In this document: positions 49,997 through 64,000 of the stretch, in pieces
How positions within the stretch are numbered: position 1 is the stretch's first letter
Layout of the letters: every line of letters starts with the position of its first letter
Position numbers and translations under genes: made by a program
Source of the DNA: Anaeropeptidivorans aminofermentans
GTDB lineage: Bacteria; Bacillota; Clostridia; Lachnospirales; UBA5962
Length of the DNA: 64,000 nucleotides
Assembly (NCBI RefSeq): GCF_940670685.1
Contig: NZ_OW711693.1
Span: 1,240,001-1,304,000 of the forward strand
Reading direction: 5' to 3'
Notes under the pieces: generated by a model
Told to the model about the DNA's origin: nothing
Databases searched by the model: none
The model's input: the letters and a program-made list of their open reading frames with translations, nothing else

Positions 49997-51085
49997 TTAC
50001 TGCTTATCAAGATAAGCCTGAATATTAGCGGCTACCTTATCATCTACCCATGTACTCCAAGATTCGGCGTTAGCCTTCATCCATTCAATTGCTGCCCCTC
50101 TGGCATCATTATTGTTGTCTGTCATATATCCAATTCCCTTACTGATAATCGGTCCTGAAAGGTGGAACTTCTTCAGAAAGTCAAGTAGTTCAGGAGCTTT
50201 ATCCGGAAAACTAGTCGACGAAGTTACCATATAGTTATCATGAGGAAAATCACATATATAATTATTTTCAGGTGTATATAATTCAGGGTCATATTCTGCC
50301 TCATCTTCAAGCTTAAACAGGTCATACTGACCATATGCATAGGAAACCACAAACCCATAACCTACCCAAGGTTCTCCCTTTTTATATGCCGCATCAAGGG
50401 ATGCGTCAGAGGCCCCCTGACTGCCTAATGTTAAGATATTAAAATGATCGGTAATACCGTATGCTTTAAGCTTATGATCTAAAACCGTAGCTGCAAGATA
50501 ATCGGCAGGAGCATTTACAAAAAGCCCTTTAGTCGGGTCCTCGGGATCAGCAAATATATCTTTATACTTAATTAAATCTTTTATTGTTTTTAAATCAGGG
50601 GTAATAGGATCTATCCCTCTTTCCTTATCTCCATTTATCATATAGGAAGGAACATATACACCTTGAACACCATCGTTATGTATAGCACCCCATTCAAGAA
50701 TTTTTCCAGAGTCTTTTAATTCTTGATAAGATTCAAATGCAATTTCTGCTATATAGGTATGGATATCTACTTCATTATTAGTAACTGCCGTAACCAGCGC
50801 TACATTTGTAGCATTTACTGGCTCTATGGGATAGCCGTAGCCTTCGCCTATTACAATTTCCATAACCTGATTAACAAACATTGAGGATTGCCAACCTGGT
50901 TCAGCATAAGTTATTTTCGGTTTCTCGCTGGAAACTTCACTTTTTGACTCTGCTTCTGCTGAAGGTTCAGCCGAGGGTGCAGCGGAAGGCTGATTGCTTT
51001 CTTGCTGGCCGGAATTAGCTGCGCAGCCAGTTAGTGAGGCAAATAATAAGTTCGTCGCAATAAAAAGTGCAATAAATTTTTTCAT
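49997..51085 (-). CDS. Glycine betaine/proline ABC transporter substrate-binding lipoprotein (OpuAC/ProX-like)
   Basis: 362 residues. A lipoprotein signal with TGC cleavage site near residue 20 is followed by a Ser/Ala/Pro/Glu-rich linker. The OpuAC-type fold has GWQSSMFVNQVMEIVIGEGYGYPIE near the start, then GSQGASDASLDAAYKKGEPWVGY (in pieces) near 225-250. AGGAGG precedes its ATG. The ligand is likely a quaternary amine; aromatic cage residues (several Trp and Tyr) are present but not mapped. Confidence 0.87.
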   Translation of the reverse strand: MKKFIALFIATNLLFASLTGCAANSGQQESNQPSAAPSAEPSAEAESKSEVSSEKPKITYAEPGWQSSMFVNQVMEIVIGEGYGYPIEPVNATNVALVTAVTNNEVDIHTYIAEIAFESYQELKDSGKILEWGAIHNDGVQGVYVPSYMINGDKERGIDPITPDLKTIKDLIKYKDIFADPEDPTKGLFVNAPADYLAATVLDHKLKAYGITDHFNILTLGSQGASDASLDAAYKKGEPWVGYGFVVSYAYGQYDLFKLEDEAEYDPELYTPENNYICDFPHDNYMVTSSTSFPDKAPELLDFLKKFHLSGPIISKGIGYMTDNNNDARGAAIEWMKANAESWSTWVDDKVAANIQAYLDKQ

Positions 51086-51528
51086 TAGTCTCCTCCTAAT
51101 ATTATAATAGTAGATTTTGTTATGTACGAAGACCTCTTTTGTAAGTATAGATTTATAGTTTTGTTAAGTCAATAAACAAAATTTAATAGCAGTATTGAGA
51201 AAGTATAAAGAGACATAATACAAAAACACAGTTAAATCAAAGGAAAGTAATTATTGTAACGATACCTATTAATTCTAAACAAAGCTATGCATTTTGATAA
51301 AGAAGCTATCATATATATTTATAATTCGACAAAAGAGCAATTTATTATTTCTATTTGTATAAGCTTATCGAATAATATATACTACATCTGTAAAATGTGA
51401 TAAACAGTTCAATATATTGATTAAAATAATATAGCGAGCTTTCTTGATAAAGCTTAGAACAATAAATCGTCTAAAATTTTGTTAAATTGACTTTTAAGCA
51501 TTGACCTAAGCAGAAGGGAAGAGAAATT
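51086..51528. promoter_or_regulatory. Divergent promoter region between the betaine and methionine transporter genes
   Basis: 443 AT-rich bases. I looked for S-box, T-box and other leader RNAs ahead of metN and saw none. No clear promoter pair can be chosen among many AT-rich candidates. Confidence 0.35.
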
Positions 51529-52512
51529 TTGATTATTATTAAAGGGCTTCAAAAAAAGTATAGTGGTTTAAAGGTACTGCATGAAATAAATCTTTCTATT
51601 AATGCAGGCGATATTTATGGCCTTGTGGGCAGAAGCGGAGCTGGAAAATCTACACTTCTGAGATGCATCAATGGTTTAGAAGAATATAACAGCGGCCAGC
51701 TTTTAGTTAACGGCCACGAAATACATAATTACAGTAAAAATGAGCTCAGAGAGTTTCGCAAAGGAATTGGAATGATATTCCAGCATTTTTCATTGTTAGA
51801 AAGAAAAACCGTTTATGATAATGTTGCTTTACCGATGGTTTGCTGGAAACATCCAAAGGAGCAGATAAATAAAAAGGTTAAGGAACTTCTTGAACTCGTA
51901 GGCATTTCTGACAAAATCAATGAAAAGCCGCGATATTTAAGCGGAGGGCAAAAACAAAGGGTAGCTATAGCAAGGGCATTATCCTTAAACCCCAAAATTT
52001 TACTTTGTGATGAGGCTACTTCGGCTTTGGATCCGAAAACAACGAAATCTATACTTGAGCTCTTAAAAGAAATTAATGAAAAGCTAGGAATCACTATTGT
52101 CGTCGTTACTCATCAGGTAGAAGTGGTCAGGCATATTTGCAATAAGGCCTGTATATTGGAAAACGGAAGAATCGTTGAGGAAGGGTCCGTAGAAGAGGTT
52201 TTCTTAAGGAATTCTCCTGCCCTTAGGCGTTTTTTAGGAGAAGAGAACACCCTTAATTATGGGAAAGGAAGACATATCCAAGTTTTTCTTCCCGAGAATC
52301 CAGATAACAGAAATATCTTTACTAAAATGGCGCTGGACTTAAACTTTGCATACTCCATTGTCGGTGGAAAAACAGAAAGATATCGAGACAAGATTTTAAG
52401 CTCATTTATTTTAACCTTCAGTGAAGACCAATACCCTGTTGCAGTGAGGTATCTTAAAAGTAAAAACATATTATGGGAGAATATAGAAGTAGAAAAGGAG
52501 ATGACTTGTTAG
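51529..52512 (+). CDS. metN: Methionine ABC transporter ATP-binding protein MetN
   Basis: 327 residues. Walker A GRSGAGKST near 38-46, signature LSGGQKQRVAIARAL near 142-156, Walker B ILLCDEATSALDP near 161-173. A C-terminal NIL-type domain (from about 250) is the methionine-sensing regulatory domain of MetN. The start is TTG 51529 after AGGGAAG. It is followed by metI after 1 bp. Confidence 0.88.
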   Translation: MIIIKGLQKKYSGLKVLHEINLSINAGDIYGLVGRSGAGKSTLLRCINGLEEYNSGQLLVNGHEIHNYSKNELREFRKGIGMIFQHFSLLERKTVYDNVALPMVCWKHPKEQINKKVKELLELVGISDKINEKPRYLSGGQKQRVAIARALSLNPKILLCDEATSALDPKTTKSILELLKEINEKLGITIVVVTHQVEVVRHICNKACILENGRIVEEGSVEEVFLRNSPALRRFLGEENTLNYGKGRHIQVFLPENPDNRNIFTKMALDLNFAYSIVGGKTERYRDKILSSFILTFSEDQYPVAVRYLKSKNILWENIEVEKEMTC

Positions 52513-56084: not shown

Positions 56085-57497
56085 ATGCTAAAATTGAAAA
56101 AACTCCTGTACACCTTAATCGTTACTATGGTTACTCTTTGTTCATTTACTTCTTGTAGCAGTGATATAGCCAGTGAATCTTCAAACACTTTTAGTACAGA
56201 AACCGCTGAAGATCAAACTCCAAAAGAAACCGCAGAAAAAAATACTATTGAACCATCTTTTGTCGCTGATGCAATAGAAGAAGATGAAAATGCAAAAAAA
56301 ATTGAAAACTGGACAGTCGATATTACTTACTTTGAAAATCAGATGGCCTCCTATACCCGTAAATTTCTTGATATTGAAAATAGCAAAGAAAATTTAGAAA
56401 TAAGCAAGAAGGTTGATATTGCATTTGACCGTCTTTATGCAGACTTACCAGAACTTGACGATTTTGATATACAGGTTCGCATGCAACAAATTACCGCTCT
56501 ATTTCAAGATGGGCATATGTTCACAGAAATTGCAGTAGGCATGAGCAGCGGTACCAGATTTCCCTTCTCCTTTCAGACTTTTGCGGATGGTGTTTATTGC
56601 ACTGTTGTCTATGACAAGTCCTATGAAAAAGCCCTCAACTGCCGGCTGGACAAAATAAACGGCGTATCTATCGATGAGGTTTTCAACCGATTTTACCGAC
56701 TCTACAGTGGTGACAATCTCTACAACTCAAGATCTCTGTTCGGATCAAAGTTGTATTATCCCATGATCCTTAAGGCTCTTGATTTAATGGAGAACTTGGA
56801 AGCTTCTGTAAACTATACCTTTACAAGCCTTGATGACAATACCTTTGGTATTTACGTGTATAAACAGATTGCTATAGATAAATTACCTGAAGCTATCGAA
56901 AGCAGGTCTGAAGGAGCGGAGGCTTTCTACAACAGTAAAAGCGAACCTATTTGGCTTGATTATCTTGAGGACAAAAAAGCACTGTATCTAAGGTTATATT
57001 ATATTCCTAGTTCAAGTGAAGGCAAAGATTTGGAAGAACGTCTGGCTTCATTTATAGATAAATACTCCGTTGAAAAAATAATCTTAGACCTTAGAGAAAA
57101 CGGCGGCGGTCAGTTTACTGCCTTAAAGAACGGTTGGGTGGAAATGTTGGTATCCTTCGGTTTAAAAACGAAGTGTCTTTATGTGATTACAGACTACAGT
57201 ACATTTTCAATGGCAGGAACTACCGCGATGTATTTAAAAGATGAGGCCGGCGCCACAGTGGTAGGTCTTCCCCCAGGCGGTGGAAAACCTTATATCGGCA
57301 GCGGACAACGAACTAGCCTCAGAAATTCCAACTTTGTAATGTGGATTCCCACATTGAATTCTTATGACAATAATTTAGGTTATAAACCTAAAAGCCTTGT
57401 AAATCACACTTTATACCCAGATATTGAAATAAGCATTAGTATTGAAGATTATATTAACAAGACAGATCCTGTTCTTAATTTGATTCTGTCATTATAG
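56085..57497 (+). CDS. S41-family peptidase-like lipoprotein
   Basis: 470 residues. Signal with lipobox FTSC near residues 22-25, then a Ser/Thr/Glu-rich linker. The S41 N-terminal helical domain ends in FQDGHMFTEI, and the core has ILDLRENGGGQFTALKNG near 335-350 and YSTFSMAGTTAMYLKDE near 368-384, where the catalytic Ser of tail-specific proteases is expected. A conserved Lys for the dyad is not certain. AGGAGG precedes the ATG. It may belong with the downstream peptide locus, which encodes a second S41-like protein. Confidence 0.7.
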   Translation: MLKLKKLLYTLIVTMVTLCSFTSCSSDIASESSNTFSTETAEDQTPKETAEKNTIEPSFVADAIEEDENAKKIENWTVDITYFENQMASYTRKFLDIENSKENLEISKKVDIAFDRLYADLPELDDFDIQVRMQQITALFQDGHMFTEIAVGMSSGTRFPFSFQTFADGVYCTVVYDKSYEKALNCRLDKINGVSIDEVFNRFYRLYSGDNLYNSRSLFGSKLYYPMILKALDLMENLEASVNYTFTSLDDNTFGIYVYKQIAIDKLPEAIESRSEGAEAFYNSKSEPIWLDYLEDKKALYLRLYYIPSSSEGKDLEERLASFIDKYSVEKIILDLRENGGGQFTALKNGWVEMLVSFGLKTKCLYVITDYSTFSMAGTTAMYLKDEAGATVVGLPPGGGKPYIGSGQRTSLRNSNFVMWIPTLNSYDNNLGYKPKSLVNHTLYPDIEISISIEDYINKTDPVLNLILSL

Positions 57498-58303: not shown

Positions 58304-59015
58304 CTATTTTGGAGCTCCAGACTTAACAGTTGGATAATCTGAATATATCTTATGCCCAGTAGATGAAGTATTATTTGCCATAACTTTATAGTAATAAGTT
58401 GTACCCGTTTTTAGCCCTGTATCTGTATAAGATTTAGTTCCGTTAGTGGTAGAATATATTTGGCTGTAAGTACAGTTTTGACTTGTTGCTCTATATAAAA
58501 TATACCCATTAGGTGGGTTAAAGCTATTATAAGACCATGATAAACGTAATGATGTATTGTATTGCTGGAGACAGTTAACGTTGGTGTTTGTAGTAACCGT
58601 ATTGATTTTACAGCTGACTTTGTAGATAGTGACGTTCCTGCTACAGCTTGAATTGAGTAATCGTAAGAAGTACCCAGTGTAGCTGTATCACTATAACTCG
58701 TACTTGTTGTCGTTCCAATCAATTTGGAATCTCTATAAACATTATATTTCAATGCTCCTGCTACACTTCCCCATGTAATGGATACTACTTTTCCTATATT
58801 AACTAAGGATTTAACTTCAGGCATTCTCATATAAGTAGCAGATGCATAGTTTGAATAGTCAGAATAAAATTCATTGCCGCCTCTGTTTGTAACGGTTTTA
58901 ATCTTATAATAATAAGTCGTACCATCTGACTTACTATTATTATCAGTCCATGTCAATGCTGCATACCTTGTATCTATTAAGGAATATCCTCCAGTAGCTC
59001 TTGTAGACCTATATA
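58304..59015 (-). pseudogene. Fibronectin type III-like protein fragment, frameshifted
   Basis: Repeats of GTTYYYKI/GTSYDYSIQAV with YRDSKLIGTTTSTSY and ITWGSVAGALKYNVY are typical Fn3 units of extracellular clostridial proteins. A frameshift near 58560 separates the last unit (NGYILYRATSQNCTYS, TTYYYKVMANN), which ends at 58304-58306. The 5' end stops at about 59015, where the peptide-gene remnant begins. Confidence 0.7.
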
Positions 59016-59028
59016 TTTCTTATTTATC

Positions 59029-59109
59029 TGCATTGGCTGCGGCTCACCTCCAGAGGTTGAATGTGCACCAAACTATGGTGCATGCGGAACAAGAAGTGTA
59101 ACCCGGTAG
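59029..59109 (+). pseudogene. Truncated third precursor peptide gene
   Basis: In frame it reads CIGCGSPPEVECAPNYGACG then TRSVTR and a TAG. This equals the C-terminal part of the peptide at 59366 (GCGSPPEIECAPNYGACG, TRSIHR). The leader half and start are replaced by the neighbouring Fn3 remnant. Confidence 0.8.
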
Positions 59110-59146
59110 CTATGTTATATTATATTATTTGTCAAAGGAGGTTATT

Positions 59147-59332
59147 ATGAGTGAAAGATTCGAGGTAATTGAACTCGATAATAGCATTGAACCTCAGGAT
59201 ATAAACTATTGCCCTAATTTGGTAATTTGTGAATGTAATTTAATTTGTTCGTGTCCTACAGATGGATTTTGTGGGGATGTTGAATGCTCACCAAATTATG
59301 GTGCATGTGGAACAAGAAGCATTTATAGATAA
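59147..59332 (+). CDS. Cys-rich RiPP precursor peptide 1
   Basis: 61 residues with eight Cys (22, 28, 30, 34, 36, 42, 47, 54). The short leader (SERFEVIELDNSIEP) resembles that of peptide 2 (KKGYEVIDINNNAIP). The C-terminus is ECSPNYGACGTRSIYR, matching the other two copies in all but a few positions. ATG 59147 lies 5 nt after AAAGGAGG. It is upstream of an ABC exporter and a YcaO enzyme, so Cys, Ser or Thr residues, or backbone amides, are likely modified. Which residues form the mature product is unknown. Confidence 0.8.
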   Translation: MSERFEVIELDNSIEPQDINYCPNLVICECNLICSCPTDGFCGDVECSPNYGACGTRSIYR

Positions 59333-59365
59333 ATGTTTGTAGATATATATTTGGGAGAGATATAT

Positions 59366-59602
59366 ATGAAAAAAGGATATGAAGTTATAGATATAAATAA
59401 TAATGCCATTCCATTTGGGTCAAATTATACTTGGTGCCCAAATGAATTTATGTGCAACTGTGGAGTTAATGCAGCAGTATGCAGTTGCGGCGATATTGAC
59501 ATTGAATGTGATTGTACGATTGACTGGGGTTGCGGTTCTCCCCCGGAGATTGAATGTGCTCCAAATTATGGTGCTTGCGGAACAAGAAGCATACATAGGT
59601 AA
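59366..59602 (+). CDS. Cys-rich RiPP precursor peptide 2
   Basis: 78 residues with ten Cys (24, 30, 32, 39, 41, 48, 50, 56, 64, 71), many as CxC pairs. Leader MKKGYEVIDINNN, tail GCGSPPEIECAPNYGACG then TRSIHR. ATG 59366 is preceded by GGGAGAG. The tail shared with peptide 1 suggests either a conserved core or a recognition/processing sequence, while the Cys-rich middle varies in length and sequence. It ends 31 bp before a strong hairpin. Confidence 0.82.
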   Translation: MKKGYEVIDINNNAIPFGSNYTWCPNEFMCNCGVNAAVCSCGDIDIECDCTIDWGCGSPPEIECAPNYGACGTRSIHR

Positions 59603-59633: not shown

Positions 59634-59676
59634 GGGCCTGTTAAAGCTACATTCGGAGCCTTGCTTTAACAGGCCC
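59634..59676 (+). terminator. Strong hairpin between precursor and processing genes
   Basis: Perfect 14-bp stem GGGCCTGTTAAAGC (59634-59647)/GCTTTAACAGGCCC (59663-59676). There is no T run, so it is more likely an attenuator or mRNA stabiliser, keeping peptide mRNA more abundant than the downstream enzyme mRNA. Confidence 0.65.
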
Positions 59677-59759
59677 GAATTATATGCAATTAATAATTTT
59701 ATGTACTAACTTAGAATAAATACGAGAATTGTTTATAAGGATTAGGGGGGTCAAATTGA

Positions 59760-60080
59760 AATATAAAGATAGACGCTATCCAAGCAGCTTTTAAAGCACA
59801 AGGAAAAAAGAGCATATATTTTGATTGCTATAAAACATTCCTTAATTCTTTAGATTCAAATAAAAATCAGAATGAGATAGTCGAATATTTGCATGTATTT
59901 TATAGTAAAGAAGTAGTTAGTAAAGTATTGAATGATTATCACGGTGATTCGTTCAAAGACTATTTCGAAATTATATGCACAGAGGAATGTAATAATTGTC
60001 AAAATATGCATTTTTGCAAGAGATTTGTCGAAAAAAAGGTTCTGTATAGTTCAGGAAAAATGATGGCTCTTACAGAATAA
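59760..60080 (+). CDS. Small Cys-motif protein with unresolved start
   Basis: The frame is open from 59760 (after a TGA) to 60080, about 106 codons. It ends with IICTEECNNCQNMHFCKRF, a CxxxCxxCxxxxxC-like cluster that could bind metal. There is no ATG/GTG at a usable place. The good ribosome site AGGGGGG and TTG at 59756 are in another frame that ends after 12 codons. Options: a frameshift just after the start (mutation or programmed), or initiation at TTG 59889 giving 63 residues. Its gene lies between the precursors and the exporter, so a role in peptide maturation or immunity is possible. Confidence 0.55.
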   Translation, partial: NIKIDAIQAAFKAQGKKSIYFDCYKTFLNSLDSNKNQNEIVEYLHVFYSKEVVSKVLNDYHGDSFKDYFEIICTEECNNCQNMHFCKRFVEKKVLYSSGKMMALTE

Positions 60081-60114: not shown

Positions 60115-61842
60115 ATGAAAAACACTTTTGAAAATAATTTGTACATGCTAAAGTACGTGTGGAAATATTGTAAAAAGTTTGTACTTTTAACGATATTGAT
60201 ATCAGTTCTATCAAGCGTGCAGTCAATATTGGTTCTCTACTTAACTAAATTTTCCATAGAAGTCATAATTAATCAGGATTTGTTTGAATATTTTATGATG
60301 TATCTGGCGCTTAACTTTTTTATTCATATAGGGCTTTCATTAATTAACAATTATTATCAATATAGTTTGTTACCAAAAAATAATTTGCATTTCATGAAGG
60401 TTATGAGGGAAGAACTATTCCATAAATCGAGGCAGGTTGAGATATCAAAATTTGATGACACCGAATTTTATGATAATTATACTCTCGCCATGAATAATTC
60501 CGATACAAGGGCAATTAATGTATTAAATACGTTTATCAGCTTAATTAATAATATTATAAAAATTATTTCAACCATAGCTGTTATTGTTTATGTGGATTGG
60601 ATTATAATTATAGCTGTTTCTATTAATGTAATGCTCAACTTTATTATAAATTTCAGGCTTTCCAGACTGTCATACTATATTAATTTAGAATCAGTTAAGT
60701 CCAACCGAATTATATCCTATATATCACGTGTTTATTATCTTAAATCTTATGCCAAGGAATTGCGTACAAGCAATGTAAATAAATCATTAAAGCATCATTT
60801 TGACAGTGCAGTAGTTCATGCTGAAAAAATCATAAAGAAATATAGTGGCAAGCAAATATCTAACTTGACTCTACAGAATATCTTCCAGATAATTGCGCAA
60901 TTTGCTATTCAGATACATTTGATATTAAGGGCAGTTAGCAATAAGATTACAATTGGTGATTTTGCAATGATATTAAATGCATCTAATCAGCTGAGCGGAT
61001 CAATTTTAAACTTTTTAAATACATTTCCAAAGCTCTACGAAAACAGTTTATATATAGAAAAATTCCGGAATTTTGTTGAATATTCCTCGGGTAATGATAG
61101 ACGAGTGGAGCTATACGAAATAAATTCTATTGATTCTATAGAATTCAGAAATGTTAGATATATATATAACAACGATAAATTAGAACATGTTTTAGATAGT
61201 ATTAACCTTAAAATTTTTAAAGGAGAGAAAATAGCAATACTTGGACTTAATGGCTCCGGTAAATCCACTTTTGTAAAATTACTGCTGGGATTGTATAGCC
61301 CGAGCGAAGGCGAGGTATTTTTAAATGGTCAAAACTATAATTTATATGACAGCAATGTATTTTTAGGGAATATAGGTGTAGTATTCCAGGATTTTGAGTT
61401 TTTTGCGATTCCAATTATTGAAAATATTTTAATGCGCCCAGTAATTGATAAGGAAAATGATGAGAAGCTGGTAAAAAGTGCATTAGTTAAGGTTGGTATG
61501 TATGAAAAAATATGCTCATTGCCTGAGGGAGTATATACAAACATAAGTAAGGAACTAGATTCATCAGGAACAACGTTTTCGGGAGGCGAATTTCAGCGGT
61601 TGGCTATATCGAGAATCCTCACTAAACATTATCAATTTATAGTACTTGATGAACCTACGAGTAATCTGGATATTATTGGTGAACGAAAAATAATGAATTT
61701 GGTTTTTAACGAATATAAAGATGAGGCTGTGATTGTTATATCCCACAAAATACAATATTTGTCCCAATTCGACCATGTTTATGTATTTGACAAAGGAAAT
61801 ATCGAAGAATATGACAGAAAGCTTGAATTAGTTGAAAATTAA
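60115..61842 (+). CDS. ABC transporter, fused permease and ATPase (peptide exporter type)
   Basis: 575 residues. N-terminal six-helix ABC membrane domain (hydrophobic segments near 20-40, 60-80, 135-180 and 250-285). ATPase: Walker A GLNGSGKST near 376-384, signature FSGGEFQRLAISR near 487-499, Walker B FIVLDEPTSNLD near 508-519. No C39 leader-peptidase domain is present at the N-terminus, so leader removal must be done by another protein, perhaps the S41-like peptidase downstream. Likely exports the modified peptide. Confidence 0.88.
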   Translation: MKNTFENNLYMLKYVWKYCKKFVLLTILISVLSSVQSILVLYLTKFSIEVIINQDLFEYFMMYLALNFFIHIGLSLINNYYQYSLLPKNNLHFMKVMREELFHKSRQVEISKFDDTEFYDNYTLAMNNSDTRAINVLNTFISLINNIIKIISTIAVIVYVDWIIIIAVSINVMLNFIINFRLSRLSYYINLESVKSNRIISYISRVYYLKSYAKELRTSNVNKSLKHHFDSAVVHAEKIIKKYSGKQISNLTLQNIFQIIAQFAIQIHLILRAVSNKITIGDFAMILNASNQLSGSILNFLNTFPKLYENSLYIEKFRNFVEYSSGNDRRVELYEINSIDSIEFRNVRYIYNNDKLEHVLDSINLKIFKGEKIAILGLNGSGKSTFVKLLLGLYSPSEGEVFLNGQNYNLYDSNVFLGNIGVVFQDFEFFAIPIIENILMRPVIDKENDEKLVKSALVKVGMYEKICSLPEGVYTNISKELDSSGTTFSGGEFQRLAISRILTKHYQFIVLDEPTSNLDIIGERKIMNLVFNEYKDEAVIVISHKIQYLSQFDHVYVFDKGNIEEYDRKLELVEN

Positions 61843-61884: not shown

Positions 61885-63588
61885 ATGAATAACCAATATA
61901 AAGATAGAGATCCATATTCCACTATTAAATTAGCTAATTTATTTTTTCTTGAAAGAGAAATTTTGATTACGGAACAGTGGCATGATAATGCAGATATTAA
62001 TTTATATTCTGTGAGTATTGGTGTTGGAAATATCAGCACTAATGGAAAAGGAGTTAGCAAATTATACGCCTTAGCCAGTGCTTATGGTGAATTGATGGAA
62101 AGGGTGCAAAATAAGGCGTTCTTTTATATAAACTCGAATATTGAGAATATGTATGGCGAAGAATTAATAAGCGATTATTGCGTGCACAGCTATTTGGAAT
62201 GGTATAAGATAGTTTCCAAGGAATATATAAATATTTTTTCACAATCACTGTTTGAAAAATTTCTGCTTTCAATGCCATCTGAACAGAAAACCAAAGTATT
62301 CACGTCTTTAGATGGAAAAAGCACTGTAGCACTACCCAATAATTTATTGAGCATTATTTATGGTAGTAACGGTATGGTGGCAGGTAATTCCGAGACGGAA
62401 GCTTATGTTCAGGGATTATCAGAAATTTTGGAACGATATGTGGCAAAAATATATATTGAAGAAAAACAAAAACCTATATATATTAATCCTGAAAGCTTGA
62501 ACTTTCTTGAAAACTTCAGTTTTATTGTTGACATTATTAATAAGATTGAGTCTACAGACTATTTCAGTGTAAAGATTTTGGATTTATCTATGGGTACCGA
62601 TATACCAGCTATCGGCATAATATTAATTAATAAGAGAGATGCCTCTTATTTTGTTAAAATTGGGGTGCATCCAATAATGGAAATTGCAATTGAAAGGTGC
62701 TTTACGGAGATGTTCCAAGGTAGAAGTCTAATTAAATATTCTAAATATATGACGGGTGCTTCTCATAATAAAAATATATTTGAATCCCGTTTGAATTACC
62801 ACAATTTTTATGTAGATGGAAGAGCTGCATTTCCGATTGAATTTTTTTGGGGTAAAGAGATTGACTATGATATGAAAAAATATAATAAATTTAAAAGTAA
62901 TAAAGATATGAAAAAATTTTTGGTCGATTTAATATATGCTTTAGGTTATGAAATTTTTGTTATAAACAATACAGTTTCCGATATATATGCATTTCACTTT
63001 TTAGTGCCTGGTATAAGCGAGGTAGCGCCAATGGATGAAAAAACGCTACTTAATTATTTAGAAGATTTAAACCCTATAGAGTTATTAAATACAAAACTTT
63101 TACATTTGGAGAAAGGCGATGTGCAGATAATTGTTGATTATATTGACAATGGAATTGACAAAAACATGCCCCTTGATACGCTGATATATTCACATAATTT
63201 TTTGAGTTCAAGTGAAGCAAAAAAATTCTATGTATTGGATTTATATATTTCTTTGAATATTAAGTTGGAAAGATATGATGTTATAGTAAATACTATTAGA
63301 GATAGCAAACTATTAATTGAGAATAATAAAACGCATTATAACTTCTATTATTGCCTTAAATTATACTGCCAGCTAAAAATCTATGGGTATCAGTATAACT
63401 ATATCAGTGCCGTTTTATCTAATTTTTATAAAAGTGAAACTCTAAACAATTTAAATAAATATATAGACAATCCGCTTTGCTTTTTTAATATTGAAACATG
63501 TCTGGATAATTGTTTCTCATGTAAAAAAATAAGCACTGAAGGTCATTGTCAATATAAACTTAAAAAGGAATTGTATTTAATCGTTTGA
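61885..63588 (+). CDS. YcaO-family enzyme, full-length E. coli YcaO type
   Basis: 567 residues. ATP-site motifs are in order: SAYGELMER (65-73), SNGMVAGNS (161-169), EAYVQGLSEILERYV (172-186) and AIERCFTEMFQGR (268-280), then VPGISEVAP near 375. These align along their whole length with E. coli YcaO (about 586 residues) as I remember it, including the helical C-terminal half. The final 40 residues add a Cys-rich tail (CFFNIETCLDNCFSC ... HC). YcaO enzymes activate peptide backbone amides with ATP, yielding azolines, thioamides or amidines. No E1-like partner gene is in the window. Confidence 0.9.
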   Translation: MNNQYKDRDPYSTIKLANLFFLEREILITEQWHDNADINLYSVSIGVGNISTNGKGVSKLYALASAYGELMERVQNKAFFYINSNIENMYGEELISDYCVHSYLEWYKIVSKEYINIFSQSLFEKFLLSMPSEQKTKVFTSLDGKSTVALPNNLLSIIYGSNGMVAGNSETEAYVQGLSEILERYVAKIYIEEKQKPIYINPESLNFLENFSFIVDIINKIESTDYFSVKILDLSMGTDIPAIGIILINKRDASYFVKIGVHPIMEIAIERCFTEMFQGRSLIKYSKYMTGASHNKNIFESRLNYHNFYVDGRAAFPIEFFWGKEIDYDMKKYNKFKSNKDMKKFLVDLIYALGYEIFVINNTVSDIYAFHFLVPGISEVAPMDEKTLLNYLEDLNPIELLNTKLLHLEKGDVQIIVDYIDNGIDKNMPLDTLIYSHNFLSSSEAKKFYVLDLYISLNIKLERYDVIVNTIRDSKLLIENNKTHYNFYYCLKLYCQLKIYGYQYNYISAVLSNFYKSETLNNLNKYIDNPLCFFNIETCLDNCFSCKKISTEGHCQYKLKKELYLIV

Positions 63589-63604: not shown

Positions 63605-64000
63605 ATGAAAAATATTAAAAGTAAATTAAATCGCAAGAATATTATTTTTGCCATATTTGTTATACTCATTATAAAATTTGTTTTTGGTGAAATTCTATCG
63701 CTATATAAATATTATACAGCCCCGTCATTTATAAAGGAATTCAGTGTAGAGGATGCATTGCATGATTATGATTATATGTGGAAAAGGTTGGAAGAAAATT
63801 ATCCATATTTTCAGGTTGCAGAGAGGGTTCTTCAACTTGATATAAATGAAATAAAATTAAGCTATAGAAACAAAATTGCTGAAAAGAGCAGTATTTCCTT
63901 TGATGAATTTTACGATATTATATTTAATTGTTCAAGAGAATTCAAAGAAGTAGGCCACTTTACAGTGCTGCCTTCTGGAAGCTATAAAATGCTTAAAAAC
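63605..64000 (+). CDS. S41 peptidase-like protein, N-terminal part (runs off window)
   Basis: 132 residues are visible. A membrane anchor (IIFAIFVILIIKFVFGEIL) is followed by VEDALHDYDYMWKRLEENYPYF and a region ending FDEFYDIIFNCSREFKEVGHFTVLPS, the pattern of the N-terminal helical domain of S41 tail-specific peptidases (compare 56085). The catalytic domain lies beyond 64000. AAGGA precedes ATG 63605. It could be the leader peptidase of the locus. Confidence 0.6.
   Translation, partial: MKNIKSKLNRKNIIFAIFVILIIKFVFGEILSLYKYYTAPSFIKEFSVEDALHDYDYMWKRLEENYPYFQVAERVLQLDINEIKLSYRNKIAEKSSISFDEFYDIIFNCSREFKEVGHFTVLPSGSYKMLKN

What the first reader, a model, noticed from the sequence alone, without database searches (positions are those of the whole stretch)
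59029..59602. Three copies of one peptide tail with variable Cys-rich middles
Seen: a remnant (59029-59109) and two intact genes share the C-terminal ~20 residues, while the central Cys region differs in length and Cys count (8 against 10). Such a pattern could mean a fixed core with variable spacers, or a fixed recognition tail and diversifying products. The remnant shows that the family once had more members here.
Basis: seen in the sequence. Interest (0 to 1): 0.6.

Follow-up and report, generated by a model that had tools for sequence, protein, structure and literature searches.

The report
Orphan Cys-rich YcaO peptide pair
A clostridial bacterium carries a small gene cluster that probably makes two related cysteine-rich peptides, altered by a YcaO enzyme and exported; the two share a constant tail and differ in the number of Cys-x-Cys modules, and debris of a third peptide gene and of a second YcaO gene lies beside them.

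Summary
Two intact genes (A1 59147-59332, 61 aa, 8 Cys; A2 59366-59602, 78 aa, 10 Cys) and a 3' remnant (~59029-59109) share the last 18 residues (14-15 of 18 identical). The tail is old and constrained: synonymous sites differ at 0.52-0.64, nonsynonymous at 0.09-0.12, so it is neither a recent duplication nor gene conversion. The middle is not free spacer: it is an array of CxC modules (two in A1, three in A2) kept in register; the N-terminus is conserved too. The genes head an operon: peptides, ABC exporter without a C39 domain, YcaO (the genome's only one, ATP/Mg residues kept, E. coli YcaO-like), S41 peptidase. No E1/ThiF partner, TfuA or dehydrogenase was found. New here: the ORF at 59756-60080 is the 3' relic of a second YcaO gene. 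Most likely this is an orphan YcaO RiPP operon, the tail being a docking follower or the shared pharmacophore. The chemistry is unknown.

The parts
59029..59109 (+). 3' remnant of a third precursor gene (26 codons and stop, no start codon)
   Evidence: Translation; E=5.9e-9 to A2; same in a near-clonal assembly
59147..59332 (+). Precursor peptide A1, 61 aa, 8 Cys, 2 CxC modules; RBS AAGGAGG upstream
59366..59602 (+). Precursor peptide A2, 78 aa, 10 Cys, 3 CxC modules
59634..59676 (+). Perfect 14-bp inverted repeat between the peptide genes and the rest of the operon; possible attenuator, processing or stability stem-loop (no clear T run)
59756..60080 (+). Relic of a second YcaO gene: last ~80 residues with the CxxxCxxC..C motif, preceded by an out-of-frame TTG start whose first residues (KYKDRRYPSSF) resemble a YcaO N-terminus; probably an out-of-frame internal deletion
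   Evidence: Profile of 13 YcaOs: E=9e-8 among 1223 open frames of the window, second only to the intact YcaO
60115..61842 (+). ABC exporter, membrane domain plus ATPase in one chain, 575 aa, no C39 peptidase domain
   Evidence: PF00005 E=9e-28; no peptidase domain hit
61885..63588 (+). YcaO, 567 aa, E. coli YcaO-like architecture, ATP/Mg residues kept, C-terminal Cys motif, no PxPxP end, pI 5.6
   Evidence: PF02624 E=4e-39; 4q84 alignment; pI
63605..64000 (+). Start of an S41 serine peptidase with an N-terminal membrane helix; continues to about 64867 in the genome (420 aa)
   Evidence: PF03572 E=1.8e-19 on the full gene

Best explanation
A1 and A2 are precursor peptides of an orphan RiPP operon with a stand-alone YcaO. 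YcaO uses ATP to activate backbone amides in or next to the CxC modules (a thioamide or a Cys-derived azoline; which one is not known). The S41 peptidase trims the product and the ABC exporter releases it. The constant tail (EC[AS]PNYGACGTRS[IV]xR) is taken here as a docking element read by YcaO or the exporter, because no leader-binding partner was found in the operon, while the number of CxC modules sets the variant made. The cluster is old and partly decayed: one more precursor and one more YcaO have been lost down to their 3' ends. Shown: gene content, tail constraint, module count, the two relics, intact YcaO residues. Inferred: that YcaO modifies these peptides, the role of the tail, S41 trimming. 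The RiPP operon reading alone I put at about 0.75; the docking role of the tail on top of it brings the whole statement to 0.45.
For: Operon order and domains. The YcaO aligns to E. coli YcaO (4q84, E=5e-32) with ALASAYGELMER, ETEAYVQGLSEILERY and AIERCFTEMFQGR matching E. coli E75/E78 and E191/E199/E202/R203 (roles of these residues from own knowledge). It is the only YcaO of the genome, and no TfuA is present. Tail pS 0.52-0.64 against pN 0.09-0.12; chance of so many synonymous changes 0.0088, 0.0034 and 0.0009 for the three pairs. Second YcaO relic. Precedents: stand-alone YcaOs acting with a C-terminal follower in bottromycin (PMC7136475); RiPP-context members of the E. coli YcaO group (PMC13063428). 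Distant relatives of this YcaO in other clostridia lie beside peptides with KCxCxC (loci L018, L020).
Against: No homologous cluster was found to show that peptide and YcaO travel together. The N-terminus is conserved too (z=7.4), as expected of an ordinary leader. The tail itself holds two Cys (three with the CG just before it) and could be modified. An unrecognised leader-binding domain could hide in the YcaO C-terminus. dN/dS rests on only 11 to 18 synonymous sites. The relics mean that the operon as a whole may be decaying.
Confidence: 0.45

Rival explanations
1. Same RiPP operon, but the tail is the core or pharmacophore: the N-terminus is a normal leader, the tail is the modified and active part, and the CxC modules are a spacer or a disulfide scaffold.
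For: Tail is the most constrained part; the N-terminal 21 residues keep [FY]EVI[DE][LI][DN]N; most RiPPs carry the core C-terminally (general knowledge).
Against: No leader-binding (RRE) protein found in the operon; the CxC block keeps its register and module structure, which free spacer would not need.
Confidence: 0.3
2. The peptides are metal-binding or disulfide-linked secreted Cys-rich peptides (metallothionein-like CxC pattern, acidic) and the YcaO acts on something else.
For: CxC modules, even Cys numbers (8, 10), pI about 4.
Against: It is the genome's only YcaO and sits in the same tight operon with an exporter and a peptidase; E. coli YcaO, which acts on uL16, is very acidic (pI 4.4, PMC13063428), this one is 5.6.
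Confidence: 0.15
3. Decaying, no longer functional cluster: the peptides are leftovers.
For: Precursor remnant, YcaO relic, broken gene on the left and IS3 copies on the right.
Against: A1, A2, ABC, YcaO and S41 frames are all intact; the tail shows purifying selection.
Confidence: 0.1

Closest known systems
E. coli YcaO (uL16 thioamidase; PDB 4q84-4q86)
   Same: Relation of the enzyme over the YcaO domain, ATP/Mg residues kept, no partner gene
   Different: Here beside small peptide genes and an exporter, less acidic, with a C-terminal Cys motif; far below the NF040716 cut-off
Bottromycin-type stand-alone YcaOs with a follower peptide
   Same: Partner-free YcaO; a C-terminal constant segment could guide the enzyme
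   Different: No sequence relation shown; Cys-rich 61-78 aa precursors; no amidohydrolase in the operon
[quoted passage not shown]
   Same: Cys-rich precursor plus YcaO and ABC exporter
   Different: No E1-like or ThiF-like partner, no SagB-type dehydrogenase in the operon, no PxPxP end
Clostridial radical SAM-YcaO clusters (loci L018, L020)
   Same: YcaO of the same branch with the C-terminal Cys motif, ABC exporter, precursors with CxCxC
   Different: They have a radical SAM/SPASM enzyme and unrelated precursor sequence

Membership tests
RiPP operon (general) | Small precursor gene next to a peptide-modifying enzyme and an exporter | tested here: met
RiPP operon (general) | Precursor is modified after translation | not testable with these tools
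   Needs mass spectrometry
LAP / azoline-forming YcaO system | E1-like or ThiF-like partner next to YcaO | tested here: not met
   No such protein among the operon genes
LAP / azoline-forming YcaO system | PxPxP at the YcaO C-terminus (PMC12338566) | tested here: not met
   Ends ...CQYKLKKELYLIV
Thioamitide (YcaO-TfuA) | TfuA partner | tested here: not met
   PF07812: no match in the genome, control genome positive
YcaO superfamily | YcaO domain with ATP/Mg residues | tested here: met
   PF02624 E=4e-39, alignment to 4q84
E. coli YcaO equivalog (NF040716) | Score over the curated cut-off of 700 bits | tested here: not met
   208.7 bits
Bottromycin-like follower system | Modification guided by a C-terminal follower | not testable with these tools
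   Only the conservation of the tail is shown
Any named precursor family in Pfam or NCBIfam | Match of A1 or A2 | tested here: not met
   No match up to E=10

The most novel reading that the evidence does not exclude
A YcaO peptide class in which a constant C-terminal follower guides a partner-free, E. coli-type YcaO onto a tunable array of CxC modules, so that products of different module number arise from one enzyme.
Probability: 0.25. Interest if true: 0.65.

Novelty: new variant of a known kind. Interest (0 to 1): 0.4.

Why it matters
It links a stand-alone, E. coli-type YcaO to defined small candidate substrates, which would let one test how YcaOs without a leader-binding partner choose their target and whether they thioamidate or cyclise Cys-rich peptides. 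The paralogue pair with different module numbers is a natural substrate series.

Tried and rejected
A weak hit to the peptide tail in another genome (G038, E=0.02) lies antisense in rpoB: chance. Viral contigs gave no relative, and neither did plasmids for the peptide; a DNA search of the region in phages found nothing. Clo7bot-type precursors were recalled as a lead, but no NCBIfam model matched and no held paper names them. A programmed +1 frameshift at 59786-59797 (AGCTTTTAAAGC) was considered for the small ORF; an internal out-of-frame deletion in a second YcaO explains both of its ends more simply. Recent strain exchange of the cluster was considered from the coarse BLAST identities: in fine bins the differences between the two assemblies sit in a patch at 50.5-52 kb, so there is no sign of it. 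Structure prediction was not run: a lone sequence would add little to the clear YcaO alignment.

Full report
Observation. The three copies are real. A1 (59147-59332) and A2 (59366-59602) are complete small genes with ribosome sites; upstream lies a 26-codon 3' remnant ending at 59109. A six-frame search of the 3.76 Mb genome finds these three places and no more. The tail matches at 14 to 15 of 18 residues; 2000 shuffles never exceed 8. An assembly of a near-clonal strain carries the same region with three mismatches in 7.7 kb and none in the three copies.

Anatomy. Each peptide has an N-terminal segment of about 21 residues ([FY]EVI[DE][LI][DN]N ... NY), then CPN, a block of CxC modules (2 in A1, 3 in A2), then CG and the tail EC[AS]PNYGACGTRS[IV]xR. 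All three parts are more alike than shuffles (z 7.4, 5.0, 12.6), so the middle is a module array with an added unit rather than an unrelated insert.

Age and constraint. In the tail, synonymous sites differ at 0.52-0.64 and nonsynonymous at 0.09-0.12; the excess of synonymous change is significant in each pair. The copies are therefore old, were not made alike by recent conversion, and the remnant was once a selected gene. The site numbers are small.

Surroundings. Downstream on the same strand follow an ABC exporter with no C39 domain, a YcaO and an S41 peptidase. The YcaO is the genome's only one; TfuA is absent. It aligns with E. coli YcaO and keeps the residues that, from the known structures, bind ATP and magnesium (residue roles from my own knowledge of 4q84-4q86; alignment). 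It lacks the PxPxP end associated with azoline-forming YcaOs. The match to the E. coli-type model NF040716 is far below its cut-off. E. coli YcaO thioamidates ribosomal protein uL16, and a few less acidic members of its group sit in RiPP contexts (PMC13063428). Nothing was seen that would bind a leader, which leaves room for recognition through the tail, as with the follower peptide of bottromycin (PMC7136475). This is inference.

A second relic. The open frame 59760-60080, between A2 and the exporter, matches the last 80 residues of a profile of 13 YcaOs at E=9e-8 among 1223 frames; only the intact YcaO scores better. An out-of-frame TTG start with its own ribosome site begins KYKDRRYPSSF, like the YKDRDPYSTI of the intact YcaO; this short match is suggestive only. 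The simplest account is a second YcaO gene that lost its middle out of frame. Together with the precursor remnant, whose left end runs into a broken gene on the minus strand, this points to a once larger cluster. IS3-type transposase copies stand at the right edge.

Distribution. A whole-collection scan of 84,980 species found the peptides only in the near-clonal assembly; the scan needs near-exact eight-residue matches. A profile search found none in 391 genomes of the class and 398 of the phylum. The nearest YcaOs found are about 30% identical and lie in other contexts: radical SAM clusters with KCxCxC peptides, loci with a small YlbF-like gene (my reading), others.

Verdict. A real, constrained, two-member (formerly at least three-member) precursor family of an orphan YcaO operon. 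The tail's role is open between docking and core; chemistry and activity are unknown.

Noticed in passing
window 59756-60080: Relic of a second YcaO gene (3' end, with an out-of-frame 5' start) between A2 and the exporter.
   Followed up: yes
window 58411-59025, minus strand: Broken gene for a repeated beta-sandwich (fibronectin III-like) protein that meets the precursor remnant at about 59020-59030: a deletion or recombination joint.
   Followed up: partly
L004 10061-12480 (window-equivalent 65060-67479): Two degraded IS3-type transposase copies at the right edge of the cluster.
   Followed up: partly
L018 4065-4625 and L020 9043-9165: Small peptides without a family match, with KC[AM]C[LM]C and a conserved acidic tail (GI[LF]E[ED]E), beside radical SAM, YcaO and ABC genes in another clostridial family.
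   Followed up: partly
L019 2925-3437, L034 6553-6870, L024 8145-8609: Met-rich repeat proteins (MHSMQSM...) near a small YlbF-like gene and a YcaO in three genomes; possibly a substrate or partner.
   Followed up: no
window 56085-57497: A second S41-type lipoprotein peptidase 1.5 kb upstream, only distantly like the one in the operon.
   Followed up: partly
window 50500-52000: Patch of several percent divergence between two otherwise near-identical assemblies, at transporter genes.
   Followed up: no
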